Shown here in pieces: positions 29,833 through 59,641 of a stretch of 64,000 bases of DNA (its first letter is position 1; each line of letters starts with the position of its first letter). The stretch is from an uncultured Cohaesibacter sp. Its GTDB lineage: Bacteria > Pseudomonadota > Alphaproteobacteria > Rhizobiales > Cohaesibacteraceae. Under the pieces are notes generated by a model, which saw nothing but the letters and a program-made list of their open reading frames with translations, ran no database searches and was not told the DNA's origin. The stretch is taken from the NCBI RefSeq assembly GCF_963667045.1, contig NZ_OY762934.1, positions 1,233,501 to 1,297,500 on the forward strand. The letters are read 5' to 3'. Position numbers and translations under genes: made by a program.

Positions 29833-29840
29833 AAGCGCCG

Positions 29841-29977
29841 GGCGGGAAATCCTTTCCTGCCGAGAGATGCGTTGACCTGACGTCATCTTGATGTGCGCCA
29901 CCCCGGCGCGCAGGACGCTCCGATCGTTATGTCTCGTCCGACGAGACGTCGGTTCCGGCCAGAAGCGGCCGGAACCG
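29841..29977 (+). other. Two intercistronic stem-loops between dctP and dctQ
   Basis: The first hairpin pairs 29841-29849 with 29853-29861 (one mismatch). The second pairs 29950-29960 with 29967-29977, eleven perfect pairs around AGAAGC. Neither has a U-run. They sit after the binding-protein stop codon and would protect its message from 3' decay. Confidence 0.65.
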
Positions 29978-30007
29978 CTACCCCCACTGGCAACCCACAG
30001 GTGTCAA

Positions 30008-31899: not shown

Positions 31900-31928
31900 A
31901 CAGTTGAAGAGCCAATAAGGAAATCCCT

Positions 31929-33728: not shown

Positions 33729-33742
33729 CCCCCACAAGACGG

Positions 33743-33784
33743 TTGCCGGAGCGCCTCATTTCGCGTTCCGGCAATTGTTTTTTC
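33743..33784 (+). terminator. Rho-independent terminator between dehydratase and kinase
   Basis: Twelve-pair stem (33743-33754 with 33763-33774, one G-U), eight-base loop, then a T-run at 33778-33783. It would end or attenuate the TRAP-dehydratase transcript before the kinase and aldolase genes. Confidence 0.82.
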
Positions 33785-33856
33785 TCCCGCTCGGGTCCAT
33801 CCTCTCTTGGCAACCACCCGATCGCGGCAGCCTTTCTGATTTGCCGGAGCCCCCAC

Positions 33857-34786: not shown

Positions 34787-35414
34787 GCAAGCCCTGATTG
34801 CCAAACTGAAGACCGGCCCCGTCGTTCCCGTGATCAACCCGCCATCCGTCGAGGCGTGTCTGGCGGCCACCGACGCGCTGGTCGCCGGTGGCGCCATCGC
34901 CATCGAGATCACCCTGCGCTCGGCCATCGCCCCCAAGGCGCTGGAAGCCTGTCGCAAGGCCCACCCGGATATCGTGATCGGTGCTGGCAGCGTGATGGAC
35001 GTTGAACGCTATGATCAGGCCGAAGCGCTGGGCGCCGATTTCACCATCGCACCGGGGCGGTGTTTGCAGGTCGAGGAACGGGCCAAGGGGCGGTCGCTGG
35101 TGCATGTGCCGGGGATCGTGACCCCGTCGGAGATCATTCAGGCCCGTCTCGACGGCTTCAAGCTTTTGAAATTCTATCCTTCCGAAGCGGCTGGCGGCGC
35201 AAAGACCCTCAAGGATTTCGGGCACATCTTCCCGGACATTACGCTGATGCCGTCCGGCGGCATCACCTTCGACACCCTGCCCGGCTATGCGGCCATTCCC
35301 ATTGTCCTGTCGGTTGGCGGCTCCTGGATGTATGCCAAGGGTGGCGCCTATCGCACGCCAGAGGACATGGCAGAGCAGATGCGCCTGTCGCTCAAGGCCA
35401 TGCTGCCCGGTTAG
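34779..35414 (+). CDS. eda: 2-dehydro-3-deoxy-6-phosphogluconate (KDPG) aldolase
   Basis: Class I aldolase of 211 residues that splits KDPG, or the 6-phosphogalactonate analogue, to pyruvate and glyceraldehyde 3-phosphate. The catalytic glutamate is in IEITLRS and the Schiff-base lysine in LKFYPSE. PSGGI and the phosphate-binding end VGGSWM are present. AAGGA lies eight bases before the ATG, which sits inside the kinase reading frame, so the two are translationally coupled. It closes the Entner-Doudoroff-like route begun by the TRAP importer. Confidence 0.9.
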   Translation: MDEQALIAKLKTGPVVPVINPPSVEACLAATDALVAGGAIAIEITLRSAIAPKALEACRKAHPDIVIGAGSVMDVERYDQAEALGADFTIAPGRCLQVEERAKGRSLVHVPGIVTPSEIIQARLDGFKLLKFYPSEAAGGAKTLKDFGHIFPDITLMPSGGITFDTLPGYAAIPIVLSVGGSWMYAKGGAYRTPEDMAEQMRLSLKAMLPG

Positions 35415-36119: not shown

Positions 36120-36866
36120 TCAGGACCCGGCAAGAGTAGCGGGTGAAAAGCTCGAGAGCATGCCGGTGAAGGGTTTGGTGACCGGGGCGGCATAGGCCCC
36201 CTGCTTGGAAGTGGAAAGCCCGAGCGCAATGAGCCCTTCGGCCTGCTTGACGGCCGCGGCTACCCCATCGATGACAGGCAAGCCGAATTCGGTTCTGAGG
36301 CTCGACGCCAGCTCGGCCATGCCCGCACAGCCCAGGACGATGGCTTCCGTCCGGTCTTCGAGCAGCGAGGTGGCGATTTCGCTGCGTAGCCGGTCGCGCG
36401 CATTGGAGTTGGGATCCTCCAGCGACAGGACCGATATGTCCGCCGCCCGAACATTGCAGCGCTCGGCGTGACCATAGCGCCGCACCAGCTCGGTGATGGG
36501 AATGCGGGAGCGCTCCATGGTGGTGATCACCGTGTAGCGCTGGGCGATGAAGGCAGCCGAAGCAAGGGCCGCCTGACAGATGCCGAGCACCGGGATGTTC
36601 ACCAGAGCCCGCGCCGCATCGAGGCCCGTGTCGTCAAAGCAGGCGATGATAGCGGCCTCTGCCCCCTGTTTCTCAGCCCTTGCCAACTCCATCAACAGCC
36701 CGGGCACCGCCAGCGCCTCGTCATAATAGCCCTCGATGGAGACCGGCCCGGTGGAGGCCGTGGCGGCGACAATCTCCGTTGCCGGTGCCGCGACGCCTCT
36801 GGCAGCGTCGGCAATGGTCGCCGTCATGGAACTGGTCGTGTTGGGGTTGATCACGCAAATCTTCAT
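36120..36866 (-). CDS. Hydantoin/Asp-Glu racemase family protein
   Basis: Cofactor-independent racemase of 248 residues. The two catalytic cysteines sit at C76 (IIACFDD) and C180 (VLGCAGM), the positions expected for hydantoin-racemase-type enzymes. The N-terminus MKICVINPNTTSSM is typical. It would invert a hydantoin, allantoin or amino-acid-like substrate. It is the last gene of the polyamine-type ABC operon, 11 bases after the second permease, which links it to the imported compound. No hydantoinase or carbamoylase is present nearby. Confidence 0.85.
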   Translation of the reverse strand: MKICVINPNTTSSMTATIADAARGVAAPATEIVAATASTGPVSIEGYYDEALAVPGLLMELARAEKQGAEAAIIACFDDTGLDAARALVNIPVLGICQAALASAAFIAQRYTVITTMERSRIPITELVRRYGHAERCNVRAADISVLSLEDPNSNARDRLRSEIATSLLEDRTEAIVLGCAGMAELASSLRTEFGLPVIDGVAAAVKQAEGLIALGLSTSKQGAYAAPVTKPFTGMLSSFSPATLAGS

Positions 36867-36877
36867 CGATCCGGTTC

Positions 36878-37696
36878 CTACTTGCGCTTGCGACGGCGGT
36901 TCATGGAGAGAATGAAGCCGATCGACGTGCCGATGATCAACAGGGAGAACAGCGTGGTGACCGTGCCCAGCGCGTAGAGCACCGGCGTGGTCACGTTGGT
37001 GGTCATGCCGAAAATCTCAAGCGGCAGGGTGTTGTAGGTACCGGAGGTCATCAGGGTGCGGGCAAATTCGTCATAGGACAGGGTGAAGCCGAACAGCCCG
37101 ACACCGATCAGGCTTGGTGCGATCATCGGCAGCAGCACATGGACGAAGCTCTGCCAGGCACTGGCCCCCAGATCCCGCGCCGCCTCTTCATAGGAGGGCG
37201 AAAAGCGGTTGAAGACAGCGAACATGATCAATACGCCGAACGGCAGGGTCCAGGTCAGATGAGCACCGAAGGCCGAGCTGTACCAAGCGGGTTGAAAGCC
37301 AAATTGCTGGAACAGCACACCGATGCCGAGGGAAATGATGATCGAGGGAACCACCAGACTGGCAATGGCAAGGTAGAACAGCGCCGTTGCGCCACGGAAC
37401 TTGCGGCGGAAGGCAAGCCCGGCCAGAAGCGAGACGACAACGGTGACCACCATTACCATCAGCCCCAGCGTGAAGGAACGGAAGAAAGATCCGCCGAAGT
37501 CACCCACGGCCTGGGTTTCGAACAGGTTGGCAAACCAGTGCAGCGACACCCCGTTGAGCGGGAAGGTCAGTCCGCCGTTCGGCCCCTGAAAGGACAGGAT
37601 GAAGACCGCCGACAAGGGGCCATAGAGGAACAGCACGAACAGGCCGAAGAAGGCTGCCAGAATATAGAACTCGCGACCGCGTTTTTCGCTTACCAT
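36878..37696 (-). CDS. ABC transporter permease (PotC-like)
   Basis: Inner-membrane permease of 272 residues with six helices. The EAA coupling loop reads EEAARDLGASAWQSFVHVLLPMIAPS. It is the second permease of a spermidine/putrescine-type importer and starts one base after the first permease ends. The C-terminus is short and basic (SMNRRRKRK). Confidence 0.88.
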   Translation of the reverse strand: MVSEKRGREFYILAAFFGLFVLFLYGPLSAVFILSFQGPNGGLTFPLNGVSLHWFANLFETQAVGDFGGSFFRSFTLGLMVMVVTVVVSLLAGLAFRRKFRGATALFYLAIASLVVPSIIISLGIGVLFQQFGFQPAWYSSAFGAHLTWTLPFGVLIMFAVFNRFSPSYEEAARDLGASAWQSFVHVLLPMIAPSLIGVGLFGFTLSYDEFARTLMTSGTYNTLPLEIFGMTTNVTTPVLYALGTVTTLFSLLIIGTSIGFILSMNRRRKRK

Positions 37697-37697
37697 C

Positions 37698-38600
37698 TCA
37701 GAGCTCCTTGCGAATGTCGACGATGCGCAGGATACCTGCGACCATGATCAGGACCAGCGTCAGCAGAATGATGGCATTGGCGGCGGCTGCGGGATATTGC
37801 AGCAGCGACATCTCGTTCTTCATCATCAGTGCCACCGAGGCGCTCTGGCCGCCGGACATCACCTGCACGGTGATGAAATCGGCCATGACGAGGGTCACGA
37901 CGAAAATCGTGCCGATGGCCATGCCGGGCTTGGCCAGTGGAATAATGACATTGGTCAGGATCTGCCAGCCTGATGCGCCTGCGTCCCGCGCCGCCTCGAC
38001 CAGCGAGCGGTCGATGCGCATCAGCGTGTTGAAGATCGGCGTCACCATGAACAGGCTGTAGAGATGGACCATGGCCAGAACCACCGCGAAATCGGAATAG
38101 AGCAGCCATTCGACCGGCGCGGGCACGATGCCCATGTTGACCAGCCCCGTGTTGACCAACCCGTTGCGCCCGAGCACCGGGATCCATGAAATCATCCGGA
38201 TGATGTTGGATGTGAGGAAAGGCACCGTGCAGACGAGGAACATCAGGGTCTGCATGGTGGCAGTCCTGATATGGAATGCCAGAAAATAGGCCACCCAGAA
38301 GCCGATGACCAGCGTGATCGCCCAGACGATGACGGCATATTTGAGGGTGTTGAGATAGGTCTTCCAGGTCACCCAGGAACCAAGCGTTTCGCCATAGTTG
38401 AAGGTGACAAAATCGGGATACATGCTGGCGAAGTCATAATCCCAGAAGCTGACCACCACGATCATGATGATCGGCAACAGCAGAAAGGCTCCCAGAATGA
38501 TCGCCAGCGGCAGCGCCTGCAGATAGGCAGACACAGAGGCGATCGAAAAGGATCGGGCGGAGAAAAGGGCTTTGGGTGCGTTGGCTTCTGCGTCACTCAT
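37698..38600 (-). CDS. ABC transporter permease (PotB-like)
   Basis: Inner-membrane permease of 300 residues. It has an N-terminal helix (LAIILGAFLLLPIIMIVVVSF), five more helices and an EAA loop (VEAARDAGASGWQILTNVIIPLAKPG). ATG 38600 is taken as start because AGGAAG lies upstream and the family N-terminus begins near there. The frame extends to 38705 but crosses the intercistronic hairpin. It pairs with the PotC-like subunit. Confidence 0.88.
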   Translation of the reverse strand: MSDAEANAPKALFSARSFSIASVSAYLQALPLAIILGAFLLLPIIMIVVVSFWDYDFASMYPDFVTFNYGETLGSWVTWKTYLNTLKYAVIVWAITLVIGFWVAYFLAFHIRTATMQTLMFLVCTVPFLTSNIIRMISWIPVLGRNGLVNTGLVNMGIVPAPVEWLLYSDFAVVLAMVHLYSLFMVTPIFNTLMRIDRSLVEAARDAGASGWQILTNVIIPLAKPGMAIGTIFVVTLVMADFITVQVMSGGQSASVALMMKNEMSLLQYPAAAANAIILLTLVLIMVAGILRIVDIRKEL

Positions 38601-38644
38601 CTGTGCCGACTTCCTGTTGCTGCGTCTCGTTCTGTCACCAACTT

Positions 38645-38667
38645 CCCCCCGGTGCGGGACCGGGGGG
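38645..38667 (-). other. Intercistronic stem-loop after the binding-protein gene
   Basis: Nine perfect pairs (38645-38653 with 38659-38667), loop GCGGG, extended by a wobble outside. It lies in the 113-base gap between the binding-protein stop and the first permease. There is no U-run, so message protection is likelier than termination. Confidence 0.65.
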
Positions 38668-38713
38668 AGGCCTATTGGGCCGTTGAGGGATTTTCGGCCA
38701 TCCATCCCGCCGA

Positions 38714-40002
38714 TCAGGACGCGATGAATTCGTTCCAGCGGCGCACCATGTAGCGGTCTTCGTCCATCACGGAGTTCCAGCAGGCAACATGGCCCATGCG
38801 CTCAAGGAACGAGCCGCCATCACGGATGGCTCCGGCCTTCTCCATGATCTTGCCTTCCGGTGAGAGAATGTCGCCCTGCGCGGCCTTGCCTTCGATCCAG
38901 TAGCCCCACTCGTCTTCGGACATATACTGCTTGGCAGTGTCCATGCAGGCGGAATAGTAGCCCTGACGGTTGAGGTAGCCGCCAACCCAGCCGGAGGTGT
39001 ACCAGTTGATATATTCGTAGGCGGCGTCAAGCTGCGCACCACTGAGGTGAGCGGCAAGACCGAGACCACCACCCCAGGACCGATAACCTTCCTTCAGCGG
39101 CTGATATTTGCAGGCGATGCCCTTGGAACGGACAGCAGCCACGGCCGGAGACCACATGGACTGGATGACCACTTCGCCAGAGGCCATCAGGTTGACCGAT
39201 TCGTCAAAGCTCTTCCAGAAGGCGCGGAACTGGCCGTCCTGCTTGACCTTGATCATGAAGTCGATGGTCTTGTCGATCTCGGCCTTGGTCATGTTGCCCT
39301 TGTCGGCATATTTGATTTCCCCCGCGGCTTCCATGATCATCGCTGCATCATGATGCCGATGGACGGGATGTTGAGAATGGAAGTCTTGCCCTTGAAGGCC
39401 GGATCGAGAATGTCGGCCCAGGTGGTGATGTCACGGCCGACGAGGTCCGGACGGATGCCCAGCGTGTCGGCGTTGTAGATGGTCGGGACCATGGTGAACC
39501 ATTCGGTCTCGCTCTTGGCAAAGGTCTTGGCATCCTTGCTTTCCACATAACCAACGGTGTGCGGCGCGGTACCTTGTGCGATGACGCTGTCCGGGGTCAG
39601 TTTGCCGGTCTTGAACAGGGGCACGATCTTGTCATAATAGGTCAGTTTCTTGGTATCCATCGGCTGGATGACGCCTGCCGGGAAGACCTTCTTCAGGATC
39701 CAGTATTCGATATCGGCGATATCGTAGGAGTTGGGCTGGGTCACGGCGCGCTGGGCGGCTGAGTCGGAATCCAGAGCCGTCATTTCCAGCGTGATGCCGA
39801 GATCTTCCTTACATTTCTGAGCGATGGCGTTGATGTTGGAAACGCCGGTACCGATCTGGCGAAGCGTGATCGGGTTCTGCGCCCAGATGGTCGGGAAGCC
39901 GGTGATGGCGCCCGAACCGAGGGCTGCACCAGCGGCAGCTGCGCCGGTTTTCAGAAGGCTGCGGCGGCTGATGCCGGATGGTTTGTTAGTCTTCTCAGAC
40001 AT
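38714..40002 (-). pseudogene. Frameshifted polyamine-type ABC substrate-binding protein
   Basis: One binding-protein gene split into two frames. The 5' part runs 40002 to 39337 (221 codons to TGA). It has a twin-arginine signal (ISRRSLLKTG) and an extracellular solute-binding family 1 (PotD-like) fold, and ends IPSIGIM-MQR. The 3' part continues in another frame from about 39352 to 38714, where the reading D-A-A-M-I-M-E-A joins smoothly onto IPSIGIM. Adding one C on the plus strand near 39349 restores a ~429-residue protein. All other operon genes are intact, so sequence error, a recent mutation or frameshifting are all possible. GGGAG precedes ATG 40002. Confidence 0.85.
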
Positions 40003-40039
40003 GGTGTAACTCCCGTTTGGATCCCTGTGAGGTGTTTGT

Positions 40040-41131
40040 TTATGATGCATTGACTTCGCCGAGGACGACTGTGTCTGTTTCCGCCCACGAAAGATGAACC
40101 GCGTCACCGGTCCTGACCGGCTTTGCGAAATAGTCTGCGTCCCTGAGGACGATGGTGAAGGTCTCGATTCCGGCGCCCTGCACCGAAAGCTTGACCGTTG
40201 CGCCAAGGTCTTCGACATTGGTCACAAAGCCGGAAAAACCGAAGCCGGGGGTTGCTTCGTCAGCCAGCCGCACGTGATCGGTGCGGATGGCGATGGAGGC
40301 GGTTTCCACCGCTTCTGCCTTGGCACCGATCCCGATGAAATGGCTGCCGCCCGCCGTTTCCAGCGTGATGCGTTCACCTTCGCGGGCGGAGATGCGGCCA
40401 GAGATCACATTGTGATTGCCCATGAAGCGGGCGACGAACGGTGTCGCCGGTTTCTCGAAAATCTGCCGCGGCGAGGCTGCCTGTTCGATCCGCCCGTCAT
40501 TCATCACCACGATCAGATCGGCCAGAGCCATGGCCTCTTCCTGAGAATGGGTGACATGGACAAAGGTCATCCCAAGCGATGCCTGCAGGCTTTTCAGCTC
40601 GGCACGCATCTGGATCTTGAGGAAAGGATCGAGCGCCGAGAGCGGCTCGTCCAGCAACAGCGCCTGCGGCTTGGTGATCAGTGCGCGCGCCAGTGCCACG
40701 CGTTGCTGCTGGCCACCGGAAAGCTGCTCGGGCCGCCGATCCGCATAGGCTTCAAGCTGCATGCGCGAGAGCATTTCCAATGCCTCGGCCCGGCGCTTGG
40801 TCTTGTCCACACCCTTCATCTTGAGGCTGAAGGCAACATTGTCGACCAGATCGAGATGAGGAAACAGGGCATAGGACTGGAACATCATGGCCGTTCCGCG
40901 CTTGGCCGGAGGCAGATCATTGACCACCTTGTTGGCGAACACGATGTCACCATCGCTGATGGCCTCGTGCCCGGCAATCATGCGCAGGGTGGTCGACTTG
41001 CCACAGCCGGAAGGACCGAGCAGGCAGGAATAGGTTCCGGCGGCAATCTTGAGGCTGATCCGGTCAACCGCAACGGTGGTGCCGTACTGTTTGGTCACAG
41101 ACGCAAGTTCGATTTCAGCTGCGTTGCTCAT
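40040..41131 (-). CDS. ABC transporter ATP-binding protein (PotA-like)
   Basis: ABC ATPase of 363 residues, first gene of the operon. Walker A (GPSGCGKST), Q-loop (MMFQSYALFPHL), signature (LSGGQQQR), Walker B (ALLLDEPLSALD) and H-loop (HVTHSQEEA) are intact. A C-terminal TOBE-type regulatory domain follows (about 240-363). The start at ATG 41131 has GGGAG five bases upstream; the GTG two codons earlier overlaps that site and is unlikely. It powers uptake of a polyamine-like or hydantoin-like substrate. Confidence 0.9.
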   Translation of the reverse strand: MSNAAEIELASVTKQYGTTVAVDRISLKIAAGTYSCLLGPSGCGKSTTLRMIAGHEAISDGDIVFANKVVNDLPPAKRGTAMMFQSYALFPHLDLVDNVAFSLKMKGVDKTKRRAEALEMLSRMQLEAYADRRPEQLSGGQQQRVALARALITKPQALLLDEPLSALDPFLKIQMRAELKSLQASLGMTFVHVTHSQEEAMALADLIVVMNDGRIEQAASPRQIFEKPATPFVARFMGNHNVISGRISAREGERITLETAGGSHFIGIGAKAEAVETASIAIRTDHVRLADEATPGFGFSGFVTNVEDLGATVKLSVQGAGIETFTIVLRDADYFAKPVRTGDAVHLSWAETDTVVLGEVNAS

Positions 41132-50804: not shown

Positions 50805-52109
50805 CTAGCCGTCCGGCCGGATGCTGTCGAAGAAGTCCGAGATCAGATCCGATCCTTCAAGTGGTCGCGATGCTGCACTGAGGGCGACCGCCAGACCGAT
50901 GGCTGACGATACCGGATTGTGCAGGTCGGCCCCCTCACCAGCATTGAGATTCATCACCAGTGTTGGCGAAAGGAACAGGCCGATGCGTATCACATCTTCC
51001 CAATCATCGGGCAGCATGCCCTCGTTCTTGAGATGCTGAAGCCATGGCTTCCAGAAATGCTCGGCCTTGGCCTTCAGCAGCGCCTTTCGGAGGCTTGAAG
51101 GCTGCCAGTCCGTGTCGATATGAAGCTCGCCATCTTCAAACCGGGCGGAGGCCGCATAGCGCTCCGACACGATGGAGGCACTGTAGAGCCAGAGTGGATG
51201 GGCAAAGATATTGTGAAAGGTCGGCTTGACCTCGGCCAGCAGCGAGGGCACGTCGCTGCCTGCGAAGGCTGGATCGAAGAAGCAGAGACGGTCCTTGTCG
51301 CTGCCTCGTTCATACCAGACATTGGCATTGTGCGCGTCACCATGGGCAACCACGCCGCCGGCATCGGCCAGCGCTTCGGGTTGATAGCGCTGGTGGGCAA
51401 GCGCGAAAATCTCCTCAAGGGTGCGCTGATAGGCAAGGCCATTGATAACCGGCCGGGCATGGGCAATCTCGTCCCACGTCAGGGTCAGCCCGCCGGGGAG
51501 CAGAAAGCGCTTGCCGACATAGAAGCGCTTGTAGCGCCCGCCGGGGAAAGTGCCAGTTTCAGGATCGATCAGCCGTTCATGAAACAGGCGATGGATCGGC
51601 TCTACCCGTGACTGGGCGGGCGTGATCGGGTGCAGGCTGTTGATGGCCACAGCAAGCAGGTGGTCGTTGAGGTCCGCTTCGGCTTCGACCGCCCTTGCCA
51701 GTGAGACCGGGTCATCGGCAAAATCCAGCTCGTAGAGCAGGTCCGAAAAGCGCGGATCCGAGCGGCGGGCATAGACCAGCACCTGCTCACCGGGCAGGGT
51801 CGACATATGCACCGGCTGGTCCACCGGCAGCCCGGCGTGGGCCAGAATGTCAGCGCGGTAATATTCGCCACGCATCGCCTCTTCGCCCTCTTCCTGATGG
51901 AACTTGAAGAAATAGTCCTTCCCCTCGGAGGAGAAGAAGCCATTGAGGGAATTGAGGGAATATTTGTCGAGGTTGATCCTGAGGGCCTCGATGGGCAGGG
52001 AAAACAGCTCGTTGAGCAGCGCCGTGAGCTGGCCCTCTGCCGCCTTGATGTCATCAAGTGCCAGAGCACGGATCATGGCTGTCCGGGAAGCGGAGGTAGA
52101 GGTGGTCAT
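50805..52109 (-). CDS. APH/choline-kinase-like phosphotransferase
   Basis: Kinase-fold protein of 434 residues in the aminoglycoside-phosphotransferase superfamily. The catalytic Brenner-type motif HGDAHNAN is at 256-263, the metal-binding aspartate in FFDPAFAG at 279, and a candidate ATP lysine at K69 (YFFKF). It would phosphorylate a small hydroxyl or amino-alcohol substrate. It is longer than typical APH enzymes because of a C-terminal helical extension. It is the last gene of the HisD-like operon, two bases after the zinc dehydrogenase, so it probably acts on an intermediate of that pathway; an antibiotic-resistance role is unlikely. Confidence 0.75.
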   Translation of the reverse strand: MTTSTSASRTAMIRALALDDIKAAEGQLTALLNELFSLPIEALRINLDKYSLNSLNGFFSSEGKDYFFKFHQEEGEEAMRGEYYRADILAHAGLPVDQPVHMSTLPGEQVLVYARRSDPRFSDLLYELDFADDPVSLARAVEAEADLNDHLLAVAINSLHPITPAQSRVEPIHRLFHERLIDPETGTFPGGRYKRFYVGKRFLLPGGLTLTWDEIAHARPVINGLAYQRTLEEIFALAHQRYQPEALADAGGVVAHGDAHNANVWYERGSDKDRLCFFDPAFAGSDVPSLLAEVKPTFHNIFAHPLWLYSASIVSERYAASARFEDGELHIDTDWQPSSLRKALLKAKAEHFWKPWLQHLKNEGMLPDDWEDVIRIGLFLSPTLVMNLNAGEGADLHNPVSSAIGLAVALSAASRPLEGSDLISDFFDSIRPDG

Positions 52110-52111
52110 GG

Positions 52112-53119
52112 TTAAGTCACTGCTCCCTGACAGCGGATGAGGGTCTTGAGGCCAGAGACCTCACCGGCCAGATTGCGCTCATAGGCTGTGGGCACCTCAT
52201 CAAGCGACACGATAGAAGCAATTGCCTGATCGAGCACCGGCGTCAGGGCGGGCAGCACGTCGGCGATGCTACGAAGCTCGCTGTCGCCAAAGCAATGGAC
52301 GCCGACCAGCGCGATTTCCTTTTCCACCAGCGTCACCGGATTGACCGTCAGATCGCCATGGCCGATGCCGACCATCGCTAGAGCTCCGCCGGGGGCGAGT
52401 TTGGCAACGAGGCTGGCGATGACCTGTGGTGCGCCGGTGGAATCGACACCATAGCGCGGCGGCTCGCTGCCCCAGTCGCCATCCAGTGCCATGATGCGGG
52501 CGTCCGTCATGGCGGCGACGCCTTCGGCGCGGGCCCTGTTGCGGTCCACCACGATCAGCGGATGGCCCTTCTGGGCGGCCAGCAACGCCACAAGGCCACC
52601 GATCGGACCACAGCCGGTGATCACGATCTCGGCCCCGTCCGGTGCCCTCAGCTTGTTGAGCACATGCAGGGCCACAGCCAGCGGCTCGGCCAGCGCCAGA
52701 TGCTCGTCCGGCACGCCATCGGGCGCCTTGAGCACGTTGCGTGCTGGAATAGTGACCGCTTCGGCAAAGCCGCCGTCAATCACCTCGCCGAGAAAGCCAA
52801 GGTTTTCGCAGACCTGTCTGAGGCCGTCGCGGCAATTGCGGCAGGTGCCGCAGATGTGGCGGCTATCGACAATCACCCTATCCCCAACGGCAACATGGTT
52901 GACGCCTTCGCCAATGGCCGTGATGGTTCCGGCAAATTCGTGCCCTGCCACCGACGGGGCGCGGGTGATCCATTCCCCGGTGCGGAAATTGTGCAGGTCA
53001 GAGCCACAGATGCCTGCAAAGCTGACCTTGAGGGTCACGTCGCCCTCGTTCGGCGAAGCGGGAAGCGCGATATCCTCTACCCGCAGATCCTTGACGCCAT
53101 AGAGTCGTACCGACTTCAT
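52112..53119 (-). CDS. Zinc-dependent alcohol dehydrogenase (MDR superfamily)
   Basis: Medium-chain dehydrogenase of 335 residues of the sorbitol/L-idonate/threonine dehydrogenase branch, oxidising a secondary alcohol with NAD(P). The catalytic zinc ligands are C38 and H60-E61, the structural zinc cysteines C90, C93, C96 and C104, and the Rossmann motif GCGPIGG is near 165-171. It lies 16 bases after the HisD-like gene. A role in oxidising a polyol-type substrate is inferred from the neighbours. Confidence 0.88.
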   Translation of the reverse strand: MKSVRLYGVKDLRVEDIALPASPNEGDVTLKVSFAGICGSDLHNFRTGEWITRAPSVAGHEFAGTITAIGEGVNHVAVGDRVIVDSRHICGTCRNCRDGLRQVCENLGFLGEVIDGGFAEAVTIPARNVLKAPDGVPDEHLALAEPLAVALHVLNKLRAPDGAEIVITGCGPIGGLVALLAAQKGHPLIVVDRNRARAEGVAAMTDARIMALDGDWGSEPPRYGVDSTGAPQVIASLVAKLAPGGALAMVGIGHGDLTVNPVTLVEKEIALVGVHCFGDSELRSIADVLPALTPVLDQAIASIVSLDEVPTAYERNLAGEVSGLKTLIRCQGAVT

Positions 53120-53135
53120 CGCTTCGCCCTTTCTT

Positions 53136-54461
53136 CTAGTCTTGCAGATATTGCTTGCGCAGCTCGCTCACGGCATTGGCGTGCGACGAGAAGCCCTCAT
53201 AGTCGGCCAGAATCTTGGCGTTTCTGGCAAGGTCGGGATAGCCCTTCGGCGTGACATAGCCGATGGAGCTGCGGCGCATGAAGTCCTGTACCGACAGCGG
53301 CCCCCAGGTCTTGGCTCCAGCCGAGGTCGGCAACACGGCGTTCGGCCCAAGGGCGAAGTTGGCAATCGAGACCGGCGTATGGGTGCCAAGCAGAATTTCG
53401 GCAGCATTGGTGATGGAGCCGAGATATTCGAAGGCCTTGGTGGAGAGGATCTCCAGATGCTCGGGCGCATATTCGTTGACGAAGGCGCAGGCGTCATCCA
53501 TGTCGCGGGCGACCACGATGCCGCCGGACTTGCCGGTGAGCACGGTACGGGAGAATTCAACGCGCAGTTCGGTCATGTTGGCCCAATGCCCCGGAAGGGC
53601 TTCAAGCGCCTCTTTGGCCACCCGCTCGGAGGAGGTCACCAGCCAGGCCGAGCTGTCTGGCCCATGTTCGGCCTCGATCAGCAGATCCATGGCGGCCAGA
53701 CCCCCGCTGACAGTGTCATCGGCAAGGATCATCACTTCGGATGGCCCTGCTGGCAGGCCCGGATCGATCACGCCGGAGAGCAGACGCTTGGCGGCGACCA
53801 CCCACGGGCTGCCGGGACCGACGATTTTCTGGGCCGGTTTGACGGTTTCTGTGCCGAAGGCAGCTGCGGCGACAGCCTGAGCGCCGCCAACCTTGTAGAC
53901 GGTGCTGACACCGGCGAGACGGGCGGCAACCAGTGTTGCGGCATCGACCTTGCCGTCCGGTCCCGGAGGGGTGAAGATGGCCAGGTTCGGCACCTTGGCA
54001 ACAACGGCAGGGCCGGTGGTCATCATGGTGACAGAAGGGAACGAACCCTTGCCGCGCGGCACATAGAGCGCGACGGATTCAATCGGTGTGAAGCGGTCAC
54101 CGGCAAAGGCGCCGGGGATCACTTCCTTCAGCCACATCGGCTCGGGAGCCTGTTCTTCATGGAAGGTGCGGATATTGGCAATGCCGAAGCGGATCGCCTC
54201 GATCACCTCTTCCTCAACCAGCGTGAAGGCTTCCTCGAACTCTTCCTCGGAGGCCTTGAGATTGTCGAGCGTCAGGCCCTTGGCCTTGTCAAGCTCGGTG
54301 CCAAAGCGCACCAGAGCGGCGTCGCCCTCGGTCTTCACGGCCTCGATGATCGGGCCAACCTTCTCGATGAAGAAGGACAGGTCCGTTTCAGAGCGCTTTA
54401 CCAGATCAGCGCGCTCTTCTGGCGACAGATCGGCCAGAACCTTGTAGGTCACGTCAGTCAT
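53136..54461 (-). CDS. HisD-like dehydrogenase, probably not histidinol dehydrogenase
   Basis: NAD-dependent dehydrogenase of 441 residues with the histidinol dehydrogenase fold. The catalytic pair E334-H335 (EYAPEHL) is kept. The zinc ligands of E. coli HisD, Q259, H262, D360 and H419, correspond here to E263, H266, N368 and H427. The histidinol-contacting H367 is A375 (GPNAVLPT). It sits among importer, SDR and alcohol dehydrogenase genes, not histidine genes. HpsN-type enzymes, which oxidise 2,3-dihydroxypropane-1-sulfonate to sulfolactate, are HisD paralogues found with two other dehydrogenases, so this is the best named candidate. No sulfolactate-lyase gene is in the window. Confidence 0.85.
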   Translation of the reverse strand: MTDVTYKVLADLSPEERADLVKRSETDLSFFIEKVGPIIEAVKTEGDAALVRFGTELDKAKGLTLDNLKASEEEFEEAFTLVEEEVIEAIRFGIANIRTFHEEQAPEPMWLKEVIPGAFAGDRFTPIESVALYVPRGKGSFPSVTMMTTGPAVVAKVPNLAIFTPPGPDGKVDAATLVAARLAGVSTVYKVGGAQAVAAAAFGTETVKPAQKIVGPGSPWVVAAKRLLSGVIDPGLPAGPSEVMILADDTVSGGLAAMDLLIEAEHGPDSSAWLVTSSERVAKEALEALPGHWANMTELRVEFSRTVLTGKSGGIVVARDMDDACAFVNEYAPEHLEILSTKAFEYLGSITNAAEILLGTHTPVSIANFALGPNAVLPTSAGAKTWGPLSVQDFMRRSSIGYVTPKGYPDLARNAKILADYEGFSSHANAVSELRKQYLQD

Positions 54462-54507
54462 TCGACTTTCCTTTCATGGGCAGTGAAGTGCCTCCCCACC
54501 CCTCTGA

Positions 54508-55305
54508 TCATTTTGATTTGAGAAAGATTTCAAGCCCCACCAACCGGTCGAGCAGCCAGACCGCGATGAGCGCGATCACCACGAAGACCACTGAAATGGC
54601 CGCCAGATCCGGCGTGATGATGGAGCGGATGTTGTTGTAGATCTGCACCGGCAGCGTCACGGTGCGCGCGTCGGTCAGCAGCAGGGATACCAGAAACTCG
54701 GTCATCGCCAGCACGAACATCAACAGCCCGCCGGTGATGACACCGGGCATGACGGCTGGCAGGGTCACGTACCAGAAGGTCTCCATGCGCCCTGCCCCGC
54801 AGTTTTCCGCGGCCAGTTCCAGATCGCGGTCAAGCACCGCCGCCGACGAGGACACCGACCAGATGACGAAGGGCAGGTTGATGACCGCGCAGGCAACACC
54901 CACCGGCCAGACATTGCCCAGAATGCCCCATTCGCCAAACACCAGCATCATGCCGATGCCCGACCCGATCAGCGGCACGGTGAAGGGCAGCAGCAAGTAG
55001 ATATTGATAAGATTGACGAACTTCAGCCTGTAGCGCGTCAGGGCAATCCCGGCGACCGTGCCGATGGGCAGCGAGACGATGACGCAGACCGTGGAGACAA
55101 TGAGCGAGCGCCAGAGCGCCAGTCGCAGCTCCCGCGCCATGGCGATCTTCTCGTACCATTTGAGGGAGAAGCCATCGGGCGGAAAGGCGATGATATTGCC
55201 CGAGGTCACCGAGGCACCAAGCACGATGATGGTCGGCATCGACAGGGTTATGATGCTGATGCCAACGAGCGTCCAGAAAATGAGCTTCTGCGATGAGCTG
55301 GTCAT
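54508..55305 (-). CDS. ABC transporter permease (PotC-like)
   Basis: Inner-membrane permease of 265 residues with six helices and an EAA-type loop (ELAAENCGAGRMETFWYVTLPAVMPG). It is the second permease of the importer, coupled to the first by an ATGA overlap. The HisD-like gene follows after 46 bases. Confidence 0.88.
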   Translation of the reverse strand: MTSSSQKLIFWTLVGISIITLSMPTIIVLGASVTSGNIIAFPPDGFSLKWYEKIAMARELRLALWRSLIVSTVCVIVSLPIGTVAGIALTRYRLKFVNLINIYLLLPFTVPLIGSGIGMMLVFGEWGILGNVWPVGVACAVINLPFVIWSVSSSAAVLDRDLELAAENCGAGRMETFWYVTLPAVMPGVITGGLLMFVLAMTEFLVSLLLTDARTVTLPVQIYNNIRSIITPDLAAISVVFVVIALIAVWLLDRLVGLEIFLKSK

Positions 55306-56258
55306 TTCTTTGCCCCCATGCCAAGGGTGCCTGCACCGAAGATCATGAAGACCAGCCCGACAATCAGCGAGCCGATGGCCACCAGCACCAGTGCCAGTGC
55401 CGAGCCCAGCCCCTGATTGGCCGTTCGGAAAAACTGGTCATAGATGGCATTGGCGATGAAATCCTGAGAGCCGCCGCCCAGCATGGCGGGCATGGCAAAG
55501 TCGGTGAGCGACAGGGTCGCCACCACAAGCCCCGCACCAATGAGACCCGGCTTGGCCATGGGCAACACCACATACCACAGGGATTGCAGCCAGTTGGCCC
55601 CCAGCGAACCGGCGGCGGTTTCGATCTCCTGCGGAATGGCGGTCAGGGCCGGTGCCAACAGCAGCACGGCAAAGGGCAACATATATTGCACGAGGCCGAA
55701 GATGACGGCCGGATAATTGAACAGCAGGCGGATCGGCTCCACACCCACCAGCCCCAGAACCTCGTTGACGGCACCGGAATTGCCCAGAATGATCAGCCAG
55801 CCATAGGCGCGCACCACCTGACCGATGAAGAAGGGCAGAAACAGGATGACCAGCAGCGCCTTACGCACAAGGGCGCTCGATGTCCGCACCAGAATATAGG
55901 CATAGGGAAAGGCGAGCAGCAGCGTGAAGACCACGGTCAGCGCAGCACCCAGCAGGGAACGCCAGAGAATGCGCAGATAGGTGGCGCTTTCAACAATCGT
56001 CAGATAGTTTTCGCCCGTGTAGTTTTCGGAAGGCAGATAGGTCGAAGTGTCGAGCGTATGCAGTGAGCTCTCGGCGATCTGGACAAGGCCGAGCACCAGA
56101 ATGCCAACCAGCAGCAAGGCCGGAGCCAGCAGCAGCCAGCCGGTATGACGGCTCAGCGACCGGGGCCAGATGAGGCTGGCACCTTCCTCAAGACTGTCCA
56201 TGACCCGCCAACGCAGAGGATAGCGGAACCGGGTACGGTCGACTGTGGGATTGTTCAT
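55302..56258 (-). CDS. ABC transporter permease (PotB-like)
   Basis: Inner-membrane permease of 318 residues. After a hydrophilic N-terminus come six helices, and the EAA loop reads IETAAGSLGANWLQSLWYVVLPMAKPG. ATG 56258 is preceded by AAGGAAG; the frame extends to 56405, but that part lies in the hairpin region after the binding-protein gene and overlaps that gene's end. It forms the pore with the PotC-like partner. Confidence 0.87.
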   Translation of the reverse strand: MNNPTVDRTRFRYPLRWRVMDSLEEGASLIWPRSLSRHTGWLLLAPALLLVGILVLGLVQIAESSLHTLDTSTYLPSENYTGENYLTIVESATYLRILWRSLLGAALTVVFTLLLAFPYAYILVRTSSALVRKALLVILFLPFFIGQVVRAYGWLIILGNSGAVNEVLGLVGVEPIRLLFNYPAVIFGLVQYMLPFAVLLLAPALTAIPQEIETAAGSLGANWLQSLWYVVLPMAKPGLIGAGLVVATLSLTDFAMPAMLGGGSQDFIANAIYDQFFRTANQGLGSALALVLVAIGSLIVGLVFMIFGAGTLGMGAKK

Positions 56259-56294
56259 CGGTGCGCTTCTTCCTTCGACTTTCCAGCCTGCCAA

Positions 56295-56363
56295 GGCCCG
56301 GGCTGACGTCCGGGCCGGGTGCTTGCAGGTGATTGCCGAGGCTGCACCGGAGCGCAGCCTCGG
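56295..56363 (-). other. Two intercistronic stem-loops after the binding-protein gene
   Basis: Ten perfect pairs (56336-56345 with 56354-56363, eight-base loop) begin six bases after the binding-protein stop. A second stem pairs 56295-56301 with 56310-56316. Neither has a U-run. They are expected to raise binding-protein message stability over the permeases. Confidence 0.7.
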
Positions 56364-56368
56364 GGCTG

Positions 56369-57475
56369 TTAGCCCTGCATGATTTCCTTGAACTTGCCGA
56401 ACCATTCGCTCTCGTTCTCGACCTGAACCTTGTTGGAGATACGGATCAGATGTTCGAAATCTTCCGGTTTGACAGGATAGGACGGATCACCGACAAGGTC
56501 GGCAGGAGGCGTCAGACCCGGCACGACGCCCGGCAGGCCAAGGCCGTTGCACCAGATCTGCTGGGCATCCTTGGTGATGGCGAAATTGACATACTGCTTG
56601 GCCCAGTAAAGCTCGTTTTCCGGCAGGCCCTTGGGAATCCAGAGACCATCGGTATCGAACTTGCAGCCCTCTTCCGGCACGGTCCATGCAATGCTCACAC
56701 CGTTTTTCTTGGCAGCAAGCGCATTGGTGGAAATGGTACAGGCCAGATCGATCTCGTTGTTCTGGAACCAGTTGGTGAAGTCCGGGTCTTCGCCGAGCAG
56801 CGGCTCCTGAGCCTTGACCTCTTCGATGAACTTCCAGCAGGCATCCATGTTGCCCGGAATGTCTTCAAGCTTGCCACCGCCAGCGACCTGTGCCGGGAAG
56901 TGGAAACCGATGCCGTCGTTATAGAGCGCAATGCGGCCCTTGAACTTGGGATCGAGCAGCGCCTTCCAGGAGGTCGGGGCGCCATCCGGGAAGGCTTCCG
57001 GGCGGTAGGCCAGCACATAGACATAGCCATAGGTGTTGACGATCGGGTAGCCGTCAAGCCCTACCGGCTTGGCCAGATCCAGCGTGTTCTTGAGGTTGGA
57101 AAGATCAGACAGATCCTCGGTGACGCCGCGCAGCGCAGACTTGGTCGCGTTGGTGGTGGTATCCCAGTTCACATGGATCGGCGGTATGCGCTTCTGGGCA
57201 ACGGCGGCCCAGAGTTTCGGCTGAATCTCGTTGTCTTCGGTCAGGTCGTGACGCACGGCGATGCCGGTCATCTTGGTAAACGGATCGGAGACACCGGCCT
57301 TCAACGCCTCAACCCATTCGCCACCCCAGGCGCGAACGATGATCTCGGCAGGCTTGTCCGGCTCGGCAGCCAGCAACCGAGTTCCCGGCAGCGTGCTCAA
57401 AAGAGCCGCGCCACTCCCTGCAACACCGGCGCGCAACACCGAGCGCCGTGATAGTCCATTCTTGAAATTCGCCAT
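56369..57475 (-). CDS. Polyamine-type ABC substrate-binding protein (Tat signal)
   Basis: Periplasmic binding protein of 368 residues in the extracellular solute-binding family 1/PotD group. The N-terminus has a twin-arginine signal (LSRRSVLRAGVAGSGAALL), so it is probably exported folded. The mature part begins PAEIIVRAWGGEWVEAL. It includes ALLDPKFKGRIALYND, typical of the family. The ligand is unknown; the operon's dehydrogenases point to a small hydroxylated compound. It follows the ATPase gene by 52 bases. Confidence 0.88.
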   Translation of the reverse strand: MANFKNGLSRRSVLRAGVAGSGAALLSTLPGTRLLAAEPDKPAEIIVRAWGGEWVEALKAGVSDPFTKMTGIAVRHDLTEDNEIQPKLWAAVAQKRIPPIHVNWDTTTNATKSALRGVTEDLSDLSNLKNTLDLAKPVGLDGYPIVNTYGYVYVLAYRPEAFPDGAPTSWKALLDPKFKGRIALYNDGIGFHFPAQVAGGGKLEDIPGNMDACWKFIEEVKAQEPLLGEDPDFTNWFQNNEIDLACTISTNALAAKKNGVSIAWTVPEEGCKFDTDGLWIPKGLPENELYWAKQYVNFAITKDAQQIWCNGLGLPGVVPGLTPPADLVGDPSYPVKPEDFEHLIRISNKVQVENESEWFGKFKEIMQG

Positions 57476-57527
57476 GTTCCCTTCTCCTATGGAAATGATA
57501 AATAGGTGCCCCTGTTTCTTGCTATTG

Positions 57528-58655
57528 TCAGGCGTCGTGATTGAAAATCTTCAGATCCTTGCCGTGCCAGCCGATCCTGACCGGCGAGCCGATTTCGAAA
57601 ATGTCGAAGCCATGGGGATCGTGATGGTAGATCTGGAACTTGATGTCAGGCGCACGCTGACAGGCAACGACATAGATCAGCCGCTCGCCCTCGAAGATCA
57701 CATCCTCGACCTTACCTTCCATCTCGATCTCGCACCCGGCCAATGGTTCGGACCCGGCGCTGATGCGCAACTGTTCGGCACGCACGGCCCCACGAGCCGA
57801 AGCACCGAGGGTTGCCTCTGGCGTGGCAGAGCCGGGTAGCAACAGATCGCCGACCTTCAGGCCATCGGCCGTCAGAATACCATCGATGAAGGTGGAAACA
57901 CCGATGAAGCTGGCAACAAACAGGTTGTTGGGGGAGCGGTAAAGCCCGACCGGCCTGTCGTGCTGCTGGATCAGCCCCTGATCCATGACAATGATGTCGT
58001 CCGAGACCACCAGAGCCTCGCGCTGATCATGGGTGACGTTGATGGTGGTCACCCCCAGTTCCTTCTGGATCCGGCGGAATTCGAGCTGCATCTCCTCGCG
58101 CAACTTGCGATCAAGGGCGGCCAGCGGCTCGTCAAGCAGCAGCAGCTCCGGCTCGAACACCAGGGCTCGGGCAATGGCGACACGCTGCTGCTGACCGCCG
58201 GACAATTCGTGCGGGCGCCGCTCGGCATAGCCATCAAGCTTCACCAGATTGAGGAATTTCTCGACCTTGCCGGAAATCTCTGCCGGATTGGTGCGGCGCA
58301 TCTTGAGCGGGAAGGCAACATTCTCGGCCGCCGTCATGTGGGGAAACAGAGCGAGCTTCTGGAATACCATACCAATAGAGCGACGGTTGGGCGGATCGGC
58401 ATCAACGGGCTTTCCGGCAATGGTTATGGTGCCGTGCGTCGGCTTCTGGAACCCGGCAATCATGCGCAGCAGTGTCGTCTTGCCAGAACCGGATGGGCCG
58501 AGGATGGTCAGGAAGGACCCGGTCTCGACATCAAATGACGCATCTTTCACCGCCAGACTGCCCGACCCGAAATCCATGGTCACACCACGGACGCTGACCG
58601 CTACGGAGCGTTCAGACCGGGAAGCGCTATCCAGCTGCAAATCACTCATAAACAT
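57528..58655 (-). CDS. ABC transporter ATP-binding protein (PotA-like)
   Basis: ABC ATPase of 375 residues with Walker A (GPSGSGKTT), Q-loop (MVFQKLALFPHM), signature (LSGGQQQR), Walker B (LLLLDEPLAALD), H-loop (NVTHDQREAL) and a C-terminal TOBE domain (about 285-375). Two starts are possible, ATG 58655 and ATG 58649, with AGGA and AAGG respectively at useful distances. It is the second gene of the operon, 111 bases after the SDR. Confidence 0.9.
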   Translation of the reverse strand: MFMSDLQLDSASRSERSVAVSVRGVTMDFGSGSLAVKDASFDVETGSFLTILGPSGSGKTTLLRMIAGFQKPTHGTITIAGKPVDADPPNRRSIGMVFQKLALFPHMTAAENVAFPLKMRRTNPAEISGKVEKFLNLVKLDGYAERRPHELSGGQQQRVAIARALVFEPELLLLDEPLAALDRKLREEMQLEFRRIQKELGVTTINVTHDQREALVVSDDIIVMDQGLIQQHDRPVGLYRSPNNLFVASFIGVSTFIDGILTADGLKVGDLLLPGSATPEATLGASARGAVRAEQLRISAGSEPLAGCEIEMEGKVEDVIFEGERLIYVVACQRAPDIKFQIYHHDPHGFDIFEIGSPVRIGWHGKDLKIFNHDA

Positions 58656-58766
58656 ACCTTTTTCCTGATCGCAATCCTTGGTTGCCGCTCGTTATGTGGC
58701 GACCTATGCCCAATATGTATAAATGTTTTTCAAGCCTTTCGAAATTGCCGCACGGCTTGGGAATGC

Positions 58767-59537
58767 TCAAATTGCGGCCAAATAGCCGCCGTCAATGCCC
58801 AAAATTTGCCCTGTGATATATTTTGAGGCATCCGAGGCCAGAAAGACAACCGAGCCGATCAGATCGTCAAGCTCCCCGAAGCGTCCCAGAGGGATCTTCG
58901 ACTGCATCGCTTCGACCCATTCTCCATTCTCGTAGAAGACTGCCGTCATGTCGGTGCGGAAGTAACCCGGCGCAATGGCATTGACCCGGATCCCCTCACC
59001 GGCCCATTCGGTTGCCAGCGCGCGCGTCAGGCCTGCGATGCCCGACTTGGAGGAGCCATAGGGCACCGCCGTGGGCACACCAACAAAGGTGGTCAGCGAC
59101 GCCAGATTGATGATCGCGCCCCCTTTTGCCATGGTCTTTGCCACAGCCTGGGAGGTAAAGAAGGCTCCCTTGAGGTTGGTATCGATGATCTTGTCCCAGA
59201 GCGCTTCCTCGATATCCTTGGCAGGACAGACATCCTCGACACCGGCGTTGTTGACCAGAATGTCGACCGGCCCGATGGCACCGATGGTCCCACGGATCTG
59301 TTCCACGTCCCGCTGGTCGCAGGCGACGCACTGGACGGAGCGCCCCGTGGCTGCAATCCGGTCTGCGGTTTCCTTCAGGCTTGCCTGCTGCCGTGCGGTG
59401 ATCACCAGATCCGCGCCAGCCTCTGCCAACCCGACGGCAAGTGCCTGACCGATACCGCGGCTGGCGCCGGTGACAATGGCCTTTCGCCCGGCAAGCGAAA
59501 AACGTCCAAAGAACGGTGGGGTGGTAGCATCAGTCAT
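58767..59537 (-). CDS. Short-chain dehydrogenase/reductase
   Basis: Classical SDR of 256 residues. It has the cofactor motif TGASRGIGQ, the NNAG motif, catalytic Ser in NLASLTT, and YGSSK as the Tyr-x3-Lys pair. The C-terminal DGGYLA is typical of the FabG-like and sugar-alcohol dehydrogenase branch. ATG 59537 has GGAG six bases upstream; a TTG five codons earlier overlaps that site. It is the first gene of the HisD-like operon, so three dehydrogenases of different folds are encoded together. Confidence 0.9.
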   Translation of the reverse strand: MTDATTPPFFGRFSLAGRKAIVTGASRGIGQALAVGLAEAGADLVITARQQASLKETADRIAATGRSVQCVACDQRDVEQIRGTIGAIGPVDILVNNAGVEDVCPAKDIEEALWDKIIDTNLKGAFFTSQAVAKTMAKGGAIINLASLTTFVGVPTAVPYGSSKSGIAGLTRALATEWAGEGIRVNAIAPGYFRTDMTAVFYENGEWVEAMQSKIPLGRFGELDDLIGSVVFLASDASKYITGQILGIDGGYLAAI

Positions 59538-59594
59538 CGGCGTCTCCTTCAATCAGGCCTGAACGAACCCGATCGACCTTGCAAATTTCAGCAG

Positions 59595-59641
59595 GATGCC
59601 GCGATGAGAAACGGCCTCCCGAAGGGACTTCTCATGGCATC
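59595..59641 (-). promoter_or_regulatory. Large inverted repeat in the leader of the HisD-like operon
   Basis: Arms GATGCC-gcg-ATGAGAA (59595-59610) and TTCTCAT-GGCATC (59629-59641) pair over 13 bases with a three-base bulge. A nested TCCC/GGGA hairpin lies at the centre. It starts 57 bases before the SDR start codon, so it could be an operator, a leader structure or a regulatory RNA element. No regulator gene adjoins this operon. Confidence 0.45.

What the first reader, a model, noticed from the sequence alone, without database searches (positions are those of the whole stretch)
50805..59641. Eight-gene operon pairing three dehydrogenases of different folds, a kinase and a polyamine-type importer
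An SDR, a HisD-like enzyme and a zinc alcohol dehydrogenase are co-transcribed with a PotABCD-type ABC importer and an APH-type kinase. HisD-like plus two other dehydrogenases recalls the 2,3-dihydroxypropane-1-sulfonate (HpsN/HpsO/HpsP) pathway. Here, however, the importer is a PotABCD-type ABC system, a kinase is added and no sulfolactate-processing gene is visible. It could be a variant sulfonate route or an undescribed polyol or amino-alcohol pathway.
Basis: partly seen in the sequence, partly recalled or inferred. Interest (0 to 1): 0.7.

Follow-up and report, generated by a model that had tools for sequence, protein, structure and literature searches.

The report
Unknown pathway feeding histidine breakdown
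These eight bacterial genes look like an uncharacterised route that imports a small histidine-like alcohol and oxidises it so that it can enter the ordinary histidine-degradation pathway, using a third, previously unseparated kind of histidinol-dehydrogenase-type enzyme.

Summary
The operon is real: eight co-directional genes (SDR, four ABC-importer genes, HisD-like, zinc ADH, APH-fold kinase) in a Cohaesibacter genome, with relatives in Rhizobiales and Rhodobacterales. The HisD-like protein is neither the genome's canonical HisD nor HpsN: it forms a third clade (support 1.000), with Glu/Asn at the zinc-ligand positions Gln259/Asp360 in 133 of 133 relatives and without HpsN's sulfonate-binding residues. 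In relatives the cluster is tied to histidine utilisation: HutC-type genes in 44 of 60 loci; HutC-type operators upstream of 53 of 94 clusters, against 0.3 in shuffles and about 3.5 at background rate; hutH in 63 of 66 genomes with the HisD-like gene, 147 of 331 without, and within 20 kb in at least 19 of 66. Many loci add an alpha-hydroxyacid oxidase or a HisC-like aminotransferase. Best reading: a C3 imidazole alcohol is imported, oxidised to imidazolelactate or histidine, and fed to Hut. The sulfonate reading is rejected as substrate, kept as analogy. Substrate and kinase role are unproven. In the window's own genome hut lies 2.26 Mb away, without HutC operator, LldD or cluster-type HisC at the operon.

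The parts
58767..59537 (-). SDR-family dehydrogenase, first gene of the operon (256 aa, YGSSK motif)
   Evidence: 41% to the HpsO-type SDR of Leisingera; present in 59 of 60 full-length relative loci
57528..58655 (-). ABC importer ATPase, PotA-like, below the PotA cut-off
56369..57475 (-). periplasmic binding protein, SBP_bac_8; weak similarity to PotD and opine-binding proteins; 66-87% identical in the six relatives aligned
55302..56258 (-). ABC permease 1
54508..55305 (-). ABC permease 2 (4-base overlap with permease 1)
53136..54461 (-). HisD-like dehydrogenase of a third clade: zinc-ligand positions Gln to Glu (263) and Asp to Asn (368), Phe141 at the position of HpsN His126; catalytic Glu334/His335 kept
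52112..53119 (-). zinc-dependent alcohol dehydrogenase with zinc-binding cysteine motif
   Evidence: 60 of 60 full-length loci
50805..52109 (-). APH-superfamily small-molecule kinase with intact HGDxHNxN motif; substrate unknown

Best explanation
The operon encodes an upstream feeder pathway for histidine utilisation (Hut). The ABC importer takes up a small, polar imidazole compound with a C3 side chain carrying alcohol groups, for example 3-(imidazol-4-yl)propane-1,2-diol, imidazole acetol or a relative (inferred). The SDR and the zinc ADH oxidise or interconvert the alcohol isomers, as HpsO and HpsP each take one enantiomer of DHPS (inferred by analogy). The HisD-like enzyme oxidises the terminal CH2OH to a carboxylate in two NAD-dependent steps (chemistry inferred from the conserved catalytic Glu/His and zinc site), giving imidazolelactate, or histidine if the substrate carries an amine. 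In many relatives an FMN alpha-hydroxyacid oxidase and a HisC-like aminotransferase would carry imidazolelactate through imidazolepyruvate to histidine (inferred), and HutH and the rest of Hut degrade it, with HutC (urocanate-responsive) controlling the cluster. Shown: gene content, the separate enzyme clade, gene-level and genome-level association with hut, HutC-type operators in relatives. The kinase presumably phosphorylates an alcohol intermediate; its place is unresolved.
For: HisD-like clade separate from HisD and HpsN with a fixed residue signature (133 of 133 loci, 118 distinct sequences, at both swapped zinc-ligand positions). HutC-type genes in 44 of 60 full-length kinase loci, 36 of them just upstream of the kinase on its strand; 43 of the 44 could be translated whole and all 43 match the HutC model TIGR02018 at E below 1e-60; the three scored individually exceed its cut-off (276-281 against 220 bits). 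hutF/I/H or the full hut set beside the cluster in several loci (HutU, HutG, HutF by Pfam). HutH in 63 of 66 genomes with the HisD-like gene against 147 of 331 without, Fisher 2e-16; by genus 20 of 22 against 59 of 119, 3e-4; HutH within 20 kb in at least 19 of 66. HutC-type operator within one mismatch upstream of 53 of 94 clusters; 20 shuffles give mean 0.3, maximum 2; the rate over whole loci predicts about 3.5. Published operator TGTA-N2-TACA (PMC12977541 passages). S. meliloti cluster genes fall together with hutU, hutG, hutH in a tolC mutant (PMC2912261 passages). FMN oxidase directly after the kinase in 23 of 60 loci, replaced in one locus by a LutABC-type lactate-oxidation set. A DHPS operon has the same layout with an alpha-hydroxyacid oxidase. 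The window genome has a hut locus.
Against: In the window genome itself hut is 2.26 Mb away, no site closer than 3 mismatches to TGTATATACA (2 to the variant seen in relatives) lies upstream of the operon, and the best LldD and HisC relatives are only 39% and 31% identical to the cluster types. HisC and LldD are not universal and do not co-occur preferentially (p 0.59); 5 of 60 loci have the Pot-like importer and none of HisC, LldD, HutC, HutF. Three of 66 genomes with the HisD-like gene lack HutH at the threshold used, one of them only 74% complete. Genomes and loci are related, so the p-values overstate independence. In the tolC data many nitrogen genes fall too, so NtrC could explain the co-regulation. 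The cluster HisC has Lys in an IVKPW/IIKPW motif (45 of 49) where biosynthetic HisC has Arg, so its substrate may differ. Pot-like and Tau/Ssu-type importers alternate, which leaves the substrate open. No assay.
Confidence: 0.55

Rival explanations
1. Catabolic histidinol pathway: the HisD-like enzyme oxidises L-histidinol (or D-histidinol) directly to histidine, which enters Hut; the other dehydrogenases and the kinase extend it to related alcohols.
For: In locus L153 the HisD-like gene follows a hutC-F-I-H-G-U set with no SDR, ADH or kinase found there, and small loci have HisD-like plus importer without SDR (L146) or with it (L150, L151, L152); then no hydroxyacid step is needed. The window genome lacks cluster-type LldD and HisC. 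Closest solved structures are histidinol dehydrogenases.
Against: The zinc-ligand swap and Phe141 are invariant in the 133 relatives and absent from the four HisD proteins compared; does not explain SDR, ADH, LldD or kinase.
Confidence: 0.25
2. The cluster degrades a non-imidazole polyol or amino-alcohol; HutC-like regulators and hut neighbours reflect shared regulation only, or HutC paralogues with other ligands.
For: The window's own operon has no local hut link; importer types differ between loci; the kinase fold is generic.
Against: Hut enzymes, not only regulators, sit beside the cluster in several genera, and HutH co-occurs at genome level. A Firmicute clade member sits next to an imidazoleglycerol-phosphate dehydratase homologue.
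Confidence: 0.15
3. Variant DHPS (sulfonate) pathway with an ABC importer and added kinase.
For: SDR 41%, ADH 31%, HisD-like 33% to the hps genes of Leisingera; shared module layout. Some loci carry an SsuA/TauA-type importer.
Against: His126 and Lys353 equivalents are Phe and Phe; separate clade; no xsc above cut-off in the genome; hut genes in the neighbourhoods read.
Confidence: 0.03
4. A duplicated biosynthetic histidinol dehydrogenase with unrelated passenger genes.
For: TIGR00069 above cut-off (417 against 243.8).
Against: The genome has a separate canonical HisD with Gln/Asp; conserved gene order in many genera.
Confidence: 0.02

Closest known systems
DHPS degradation module HpsN/HpsO/HpsP with SlcD-type oxidase (Leisingera L181; PMC11131964, PMC11382572)
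   Same: HisD-fold plus SDR plus zinc ADH in one operon with an importer and an alpha-hydroxyacid oxidase
   Different: HisD-like clade lacks the sulfonate-binding His and Lys and has a Glu/Asn zinc-ligand swap; ABC importer and kinase, with HutC-type regulators and hut neighbours in relatives, instead of TRAP and sulfonate genes
Histidinol dehydrogenase HisD (E. coli, Azospirillum, Pseudochrobactrum, own second copy)
   Same: fold, catalytic Glu/His pair, two zinc-ligand His residues
   Different: separate clade, Gln259 to Glu, Asp360 to Asn, usually Tyr361 to Phe and His367 to Ala
Histidine utilisation (Hut) pathway with HutC
   Same: regulator family, operator and neighbouring enzymes in relatives
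   Different: the cluster would add steps upstream of histidine or urocanate that standard Hut does not contain
APH / 5-methylthioribose kinase superfamily
   Same: fold type and HGDxHNxN catalytic motif
   Different: 9-15% identity to the 50 listed structural matches with low TM-scores, Pfam APH below cut-off, no NCBIfam match

Membership tests
HpsN (DHPS-3-dehydrogenase) | G-R-Y-A/S-H motif with zinc/sulfonate-binding His126 (PMC11382572) | tested here: not met
   window has G-K-G-S-F; Phe in 133 of 133 HisD-like sequences; the Leisingera and Ruegeria HpsN-type proteins have the His
HpsN (DHPS-3-dehydrogenase) | Asp352-Lys353 pair | tested here: not met
   Asn-Phe in the window
HpsN (DHPS-3-dehydrogenase) | clusters with HpsN | tested here: not met
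   separate clade; 8v35 159 bits and 8wwe 194 bits against 253 for the best HisD structure
DHPS pathway | sulfolyase route in genome (Xsc, SuyAB or CuyA) | tested here: inconclusive
   Xsc tested: none above cut-off; SuyAB and CuyA not searched
Biosynthetic HisD | Gln259 and Asp360 zinc ligands | tested here: not met
   Glu and Asn in the window and in 133 of 133 relatives; own second HisD has Gln and Asp
Biosynthetic HisD | only hisD of the genome | tested here: not met
   two HisD-family genes
HisD superfamily (PF00815) | fold and catalytic Glu326/His327, His262, His419 | tested here: met
   446 bits; residues kept
Hut-linked cluster | HutC regulator or hut enzymes beside the cluster | tested here: inconclusive
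   met in relatives (HutC-type gene in 44 of 60); not met in the window's own locus
PotABCD polyamine importer | scores above Pot model cut-offs | tested here: not met
APH-type kinase | HGDxHNxN, beta3-type Lys (FFKF), metal-binding Asp (DPA) | tested here: met
   92, 90 and 91 of 92 relatives; assignment of the Lys and Asp motifs is by eye
Any imidazole-alcohol dehydrogenase | activity on an imidazole alcohol | not testable with these tools
   needs enzyme assay

The most novel reading that the evidence does not exclude
A previously undescribed catabolic pathway for imidazole polyols (imidazolyl-propanediol, imidazole acetol or imidazoleglycerol type), carried by rhizobia (also on symbiotic megaplasmids), roseobacters and some enterobacterial plasmids, built on a third functional class of the histidinol dehydrogenase superfamily whose zinc site has a reciprocal Glu/Asn exchange, and paralleling the DHPS pathway with imidazole in place of sulfonate.
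Probability: 0.42. Interest if true: 0.78.

Novelty: new variant of a known kind. Interest (0 to 1): 0.62.

Why it matters
Public records annotate this gene as hisD or histidinol dehydrogenase (for example the plasmid records; hisD2 of S. meliloti). If the reading holds, it is a catabolic enzyme, and a route from unknown plant or marine imidazole compounds into histidine degradation becomes directly testable in a laboratory rhizobium. The invariant zinc-ligand swap also offers a natural experiment on how the HisD fold chooses its substrate.

Tried and rejected
Sulfonate pathway: rejected on residues, clade and genome context. Polyamine import: not supported by family cut-offs. Kinase plus HisC as a phosphate-dependent unit making imidazole-acetol phosphate: considered because HisC is in 36 of 60 kinase loci and 0 of 7 kinase-less loci that keep SDR, HisD and ADH with HutC (p 0.003; loci related), but the cluster HisC has Lys where HisC has Arg (45 of 49; that this Arg binds phosphate is recalled), so left open. 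HisC and LldD as one unit: no association (p 0.59). Structure of the binding protein: model failed (mean pLDDT 40), not used. Kinase fold search: only weak APH(9)/methylthioribose-kinase similarity from a model of mean pLDDT 81. Literature: the listings showed no description of the pathway; the library lacks most subscription papers, so this is not proof of absence.
Full report
What is there. The window lies in a 5.24 Mb single-contig genome of Cohaesibacter: two same-genus genomes with the locus match named contigs of C. haloalkalitolerans and C. celericrescens in contig length and identity. Eight genes on the minus strand, 59537 down to 50805, form one unit: SDR, ABC ATPase, binding protein, two permeases, HisD-like, zinc ADH, APH-type kinase. 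The block is conserved at 94-99.7% in two congeners and at 70-93% in a third, but the kinase is found in only 4 of the 18 same-genus genomes searched, own included, so it is an accessory unit.

The HisD-like enzyme is a third clade. The genome has a second, canonical HisD (37% identical). Against solved structures the HisD-like protein scores 253 bits with the best HisD, and 194 and 159 with DHPS dehydrogenases 8wwe and 8v35. The DHPS-dehydrogenase paper (PMC11382572; abstract and whole Results section) gives the residues: HpsN has G-R-Y-A/S-H (His126) and Asp352-Lys353; HisD has G-S-A-P-L; both keep Gln and Asp as zinc ligands. In HisD-like sequences from 133 fetched loci (118 distinct) all 133 have Phe at the His126 position, Glu for Gln259 and Asn for Asp360, and all keep the catalytic Glu/His pair and the two zinc-ligand His residues; Phe for Tyr361 in 130, Ala for His367 in 128 (E. 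coli HisD numbers are recalled and were mapped through conserved motifs). A FastTree tree with E. coli, Azospirillum, Pseudochrobactrum and own HisD, two HpsN-type proteins and two further paralogues separates the HisD-like proteins, with a Firmicute member at their base, with local support 1.000. The Leisingera yardstick behaves as HpsN: 784 bits to 8wwe, in an operon with TRAP importer, SDR, ADH, comDE and an alpha-hydroxyacid oxidase.

The link to histidine utilisation. Nine neighbourhoods of about 19 kb around the kinase showed hutC-, hutF-, hutI- or hutH-like genes in several. Family models support them: three HutC-like proteins 276-281 bits against 220, HutI, HutH and HutF of L018 above cut-off; the HutH-like protein of L019 is below (456 against 539). 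A scan of named genomes returned the best 80 of 217 kinase relatives, a sample biased to close ones. Among the 60 of these 80 loci longer than 20 kb, the HisD-like gene is in 60, ADH in 60, SDR in 59, a HutC-type gene in 44, a HisC-like gene in 36, an LldD-like oxidase in 23, HutF in 7, HutI in 3, HutH in 0 with the query used (with a second HutH query, labels one, L098); the Pot-like importer in 36, a Tau/Ssu-type importer in 22, never both, neither in 2. Of the 44 HutC-type genes 43 could be translated whole and all 43 match TIGR02018 at E below 1e-60. The HutC gene starts within 1 kb upstream of the kinase on its strand in 36 of 44, and the oxidase follows the kinase in all 23. Five of the 60 loci have the Pot-like importer and none of HisC, LldD, HutC or HutF.

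An anchor that does not use the kinase gives the same answer. Of 397 genomes of the order, 66 have the HisD-like gene at E below 1e-110 and 30 have the kinase, all 30 among the 66. HutH (E below 1e-100) is found in 63 of those 66 and in 147 of the other 331 (Fisher 2e-16); by genus, 20 of 22 against 59 of 119 (3e-4). HutH lies within 20 kb of the HisD-like gene in at least 19 of 66 (the HutH list was truncated); in the window genome it is 2.26 Mb away. The genomes are related, so the p-values overstate independence.

I fetched 17 further loci taken around the HisD-like gene, 15 of them without the kinase at that locus. They show a series: L153, HisD-like directly after a hutC-F-I-H-G-U set; L146, HisD-like with Tau-type importer and HutC gene; L150, L151, L152, with importer and SDR; L147 and L148, the same plus HutC gene; L149, SDR and ADH without importer found; L139-L145, SDR-HisD-ADH-HutC, with oxidase in 4 of 7, L142 adjoining hutF, U, G, H, I. 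Part of the listing was cut, so L147-L149 rest. The HisD-like enzyme is the constant part; the others look like additions.

Regulation. The published HutC operator is TGTA-N2-TACA (PMC12977541, passages). Within about 450 bases upstream of the SDR, 53 of 94 clusters (52 of 93 distinct sequences) have a site within one mismatch of TGTATATACA. Twenty dinucleotide shuffles give a mean of 0.3 and at most 2; the rate over the whole loci, real sites included, predicts about 3.5 of 94. The exact form TGTCTATACA or its reverse complement occurs in 46 of 94 and in none of the shuffles. Sites occur in 43 of 67 clusters with a HutC-type gene in the locus and 10 of 27 without. In S. meliloti the homologous pSymA genes appear to be SMa0387 (hisC3), SMa0391-0396, SMa0398 (hisD2) and SMa0402; I matched them by gene order and pSymA position, since the strain 2011 record carries no annotation. 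They are down 8- to 24-fold in a tolC mutant, with hutU, hutG and hutH down 8- to 12-fold (PMC2912261, passages); nitrogen-control genes fall too, so this is supportive only. SMa0392 is an AbcR1/2 sRNA target (PMC8844928, passages).

Chemistry. In the DHPS pathway HpsN, HpsO and HpsP oxidise the C3 alcohol, and SlcC, SlcD or ComC oxidise sulfolactate further (PMC11131964, abstract and one Results section). Here the same layout occurs with hut in place of sulfonate genes: SDR, ADH, HisD-like, and in 23 of 60 loci an FMN oxidase related to lactate dehydrogenase. In locus L154 that oxidase is absent and a LutA/B/C-type lactate-oxidation set directly follows the kinase (LutB 478 bits against 445); near the cluster of a Klebsiella plasmid lie an FMN oxidase and a GhrA-like protein. 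This points to an alpha-hydroxyacid intermediate, which with an imidazole ring would be imidazolelactate; a HisC-like aminotransferase would then give histidine. This route is inference. The direct alternative, histidinol to histidine, fits the smallest loci and is ranked second. The Firmicute member (Monoglobus, 45%, same signature) sits next to an IGPD homologue (PF00475, 105 bits) and a HAD hydrolase, again pointing to imidazole C3 compounds.

Limits. The window genome's hut locus (hutU, G, H, I, F and C with an amino-acid-type importer, at about 3.54 Mb, hutU, hutG and the importer named by eye from their translations) is far from the operon. The operon has no HutC-type operator (best 3 mismatches to TGTATATACA, 2 to the variant), and the genome has no cluster-type oxidase (39% best) or HisC (31% best). 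So for this genome the pathway is read by homology to its relatives. The kinase keeps the catalytic motifs and has a weak APH/methylthioribose-kinase fold match, but no assigned step.

Verdict. The sulfonate reading is rejected; 'undescribed pathway' stands, with the hut link as the new and testable content. None of the literature listings showed a description of it; the library is partial.

Noticed in passing
L182:6992-9922 (Monoglobus pectinilyticus record NZ_OY725736.1): A HisD-like gene with the same Glu/Asn signature is followed by a diverged imidazoleglycerol-phosphate dehydratase homologue and a HAD hydrolase; no other his genes are annotated in the 15 kb read.
   Followed up: partly
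L133:8000-14949 and L134:7982-14954: Enterobacterial plasmids (Klebsiella, Pantoea) carry a rearranged version with a Tau/Ssu-type importer, HisD-like, kinase, ADH, SDR; in the Klebsiella record read, IS elements lie on both sides.
   Followed up: partly
L154:14095-17065: A LutABC-type set directly follows the kinase where relatives have an FMN alpha-hydroxyacid oxidase: apparent non-orthologous replacement, one locus.
   Followed up: partly
window 36120-41131: A second Pot-type importer with an Asp/Glu racemase-like gene (named by eye) lies nearby on the same strand; in two congeners (L013, L014) it neighbours the kinase end of the operon, separated by one GntR-type gene.
   Followed up: no
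window 28807-35414: TRAP importer followed by a dehydratase-like gene of about 600 aa, a sugar-kinase-like and an aldolase-like gene, resembling sugar-acid catabolism (named by eye from translations).
   Followed up: no
L019:10833-13807: The kinase gene stands next to a HutH-like ammonia lyase (456 bits, below the HutH cut-off of 539) without the rest of the cluster; that genome's HisD-like gene is 172 kb away with a Tau-type importer and HutC-like gene (L146).
   Followed up: partly
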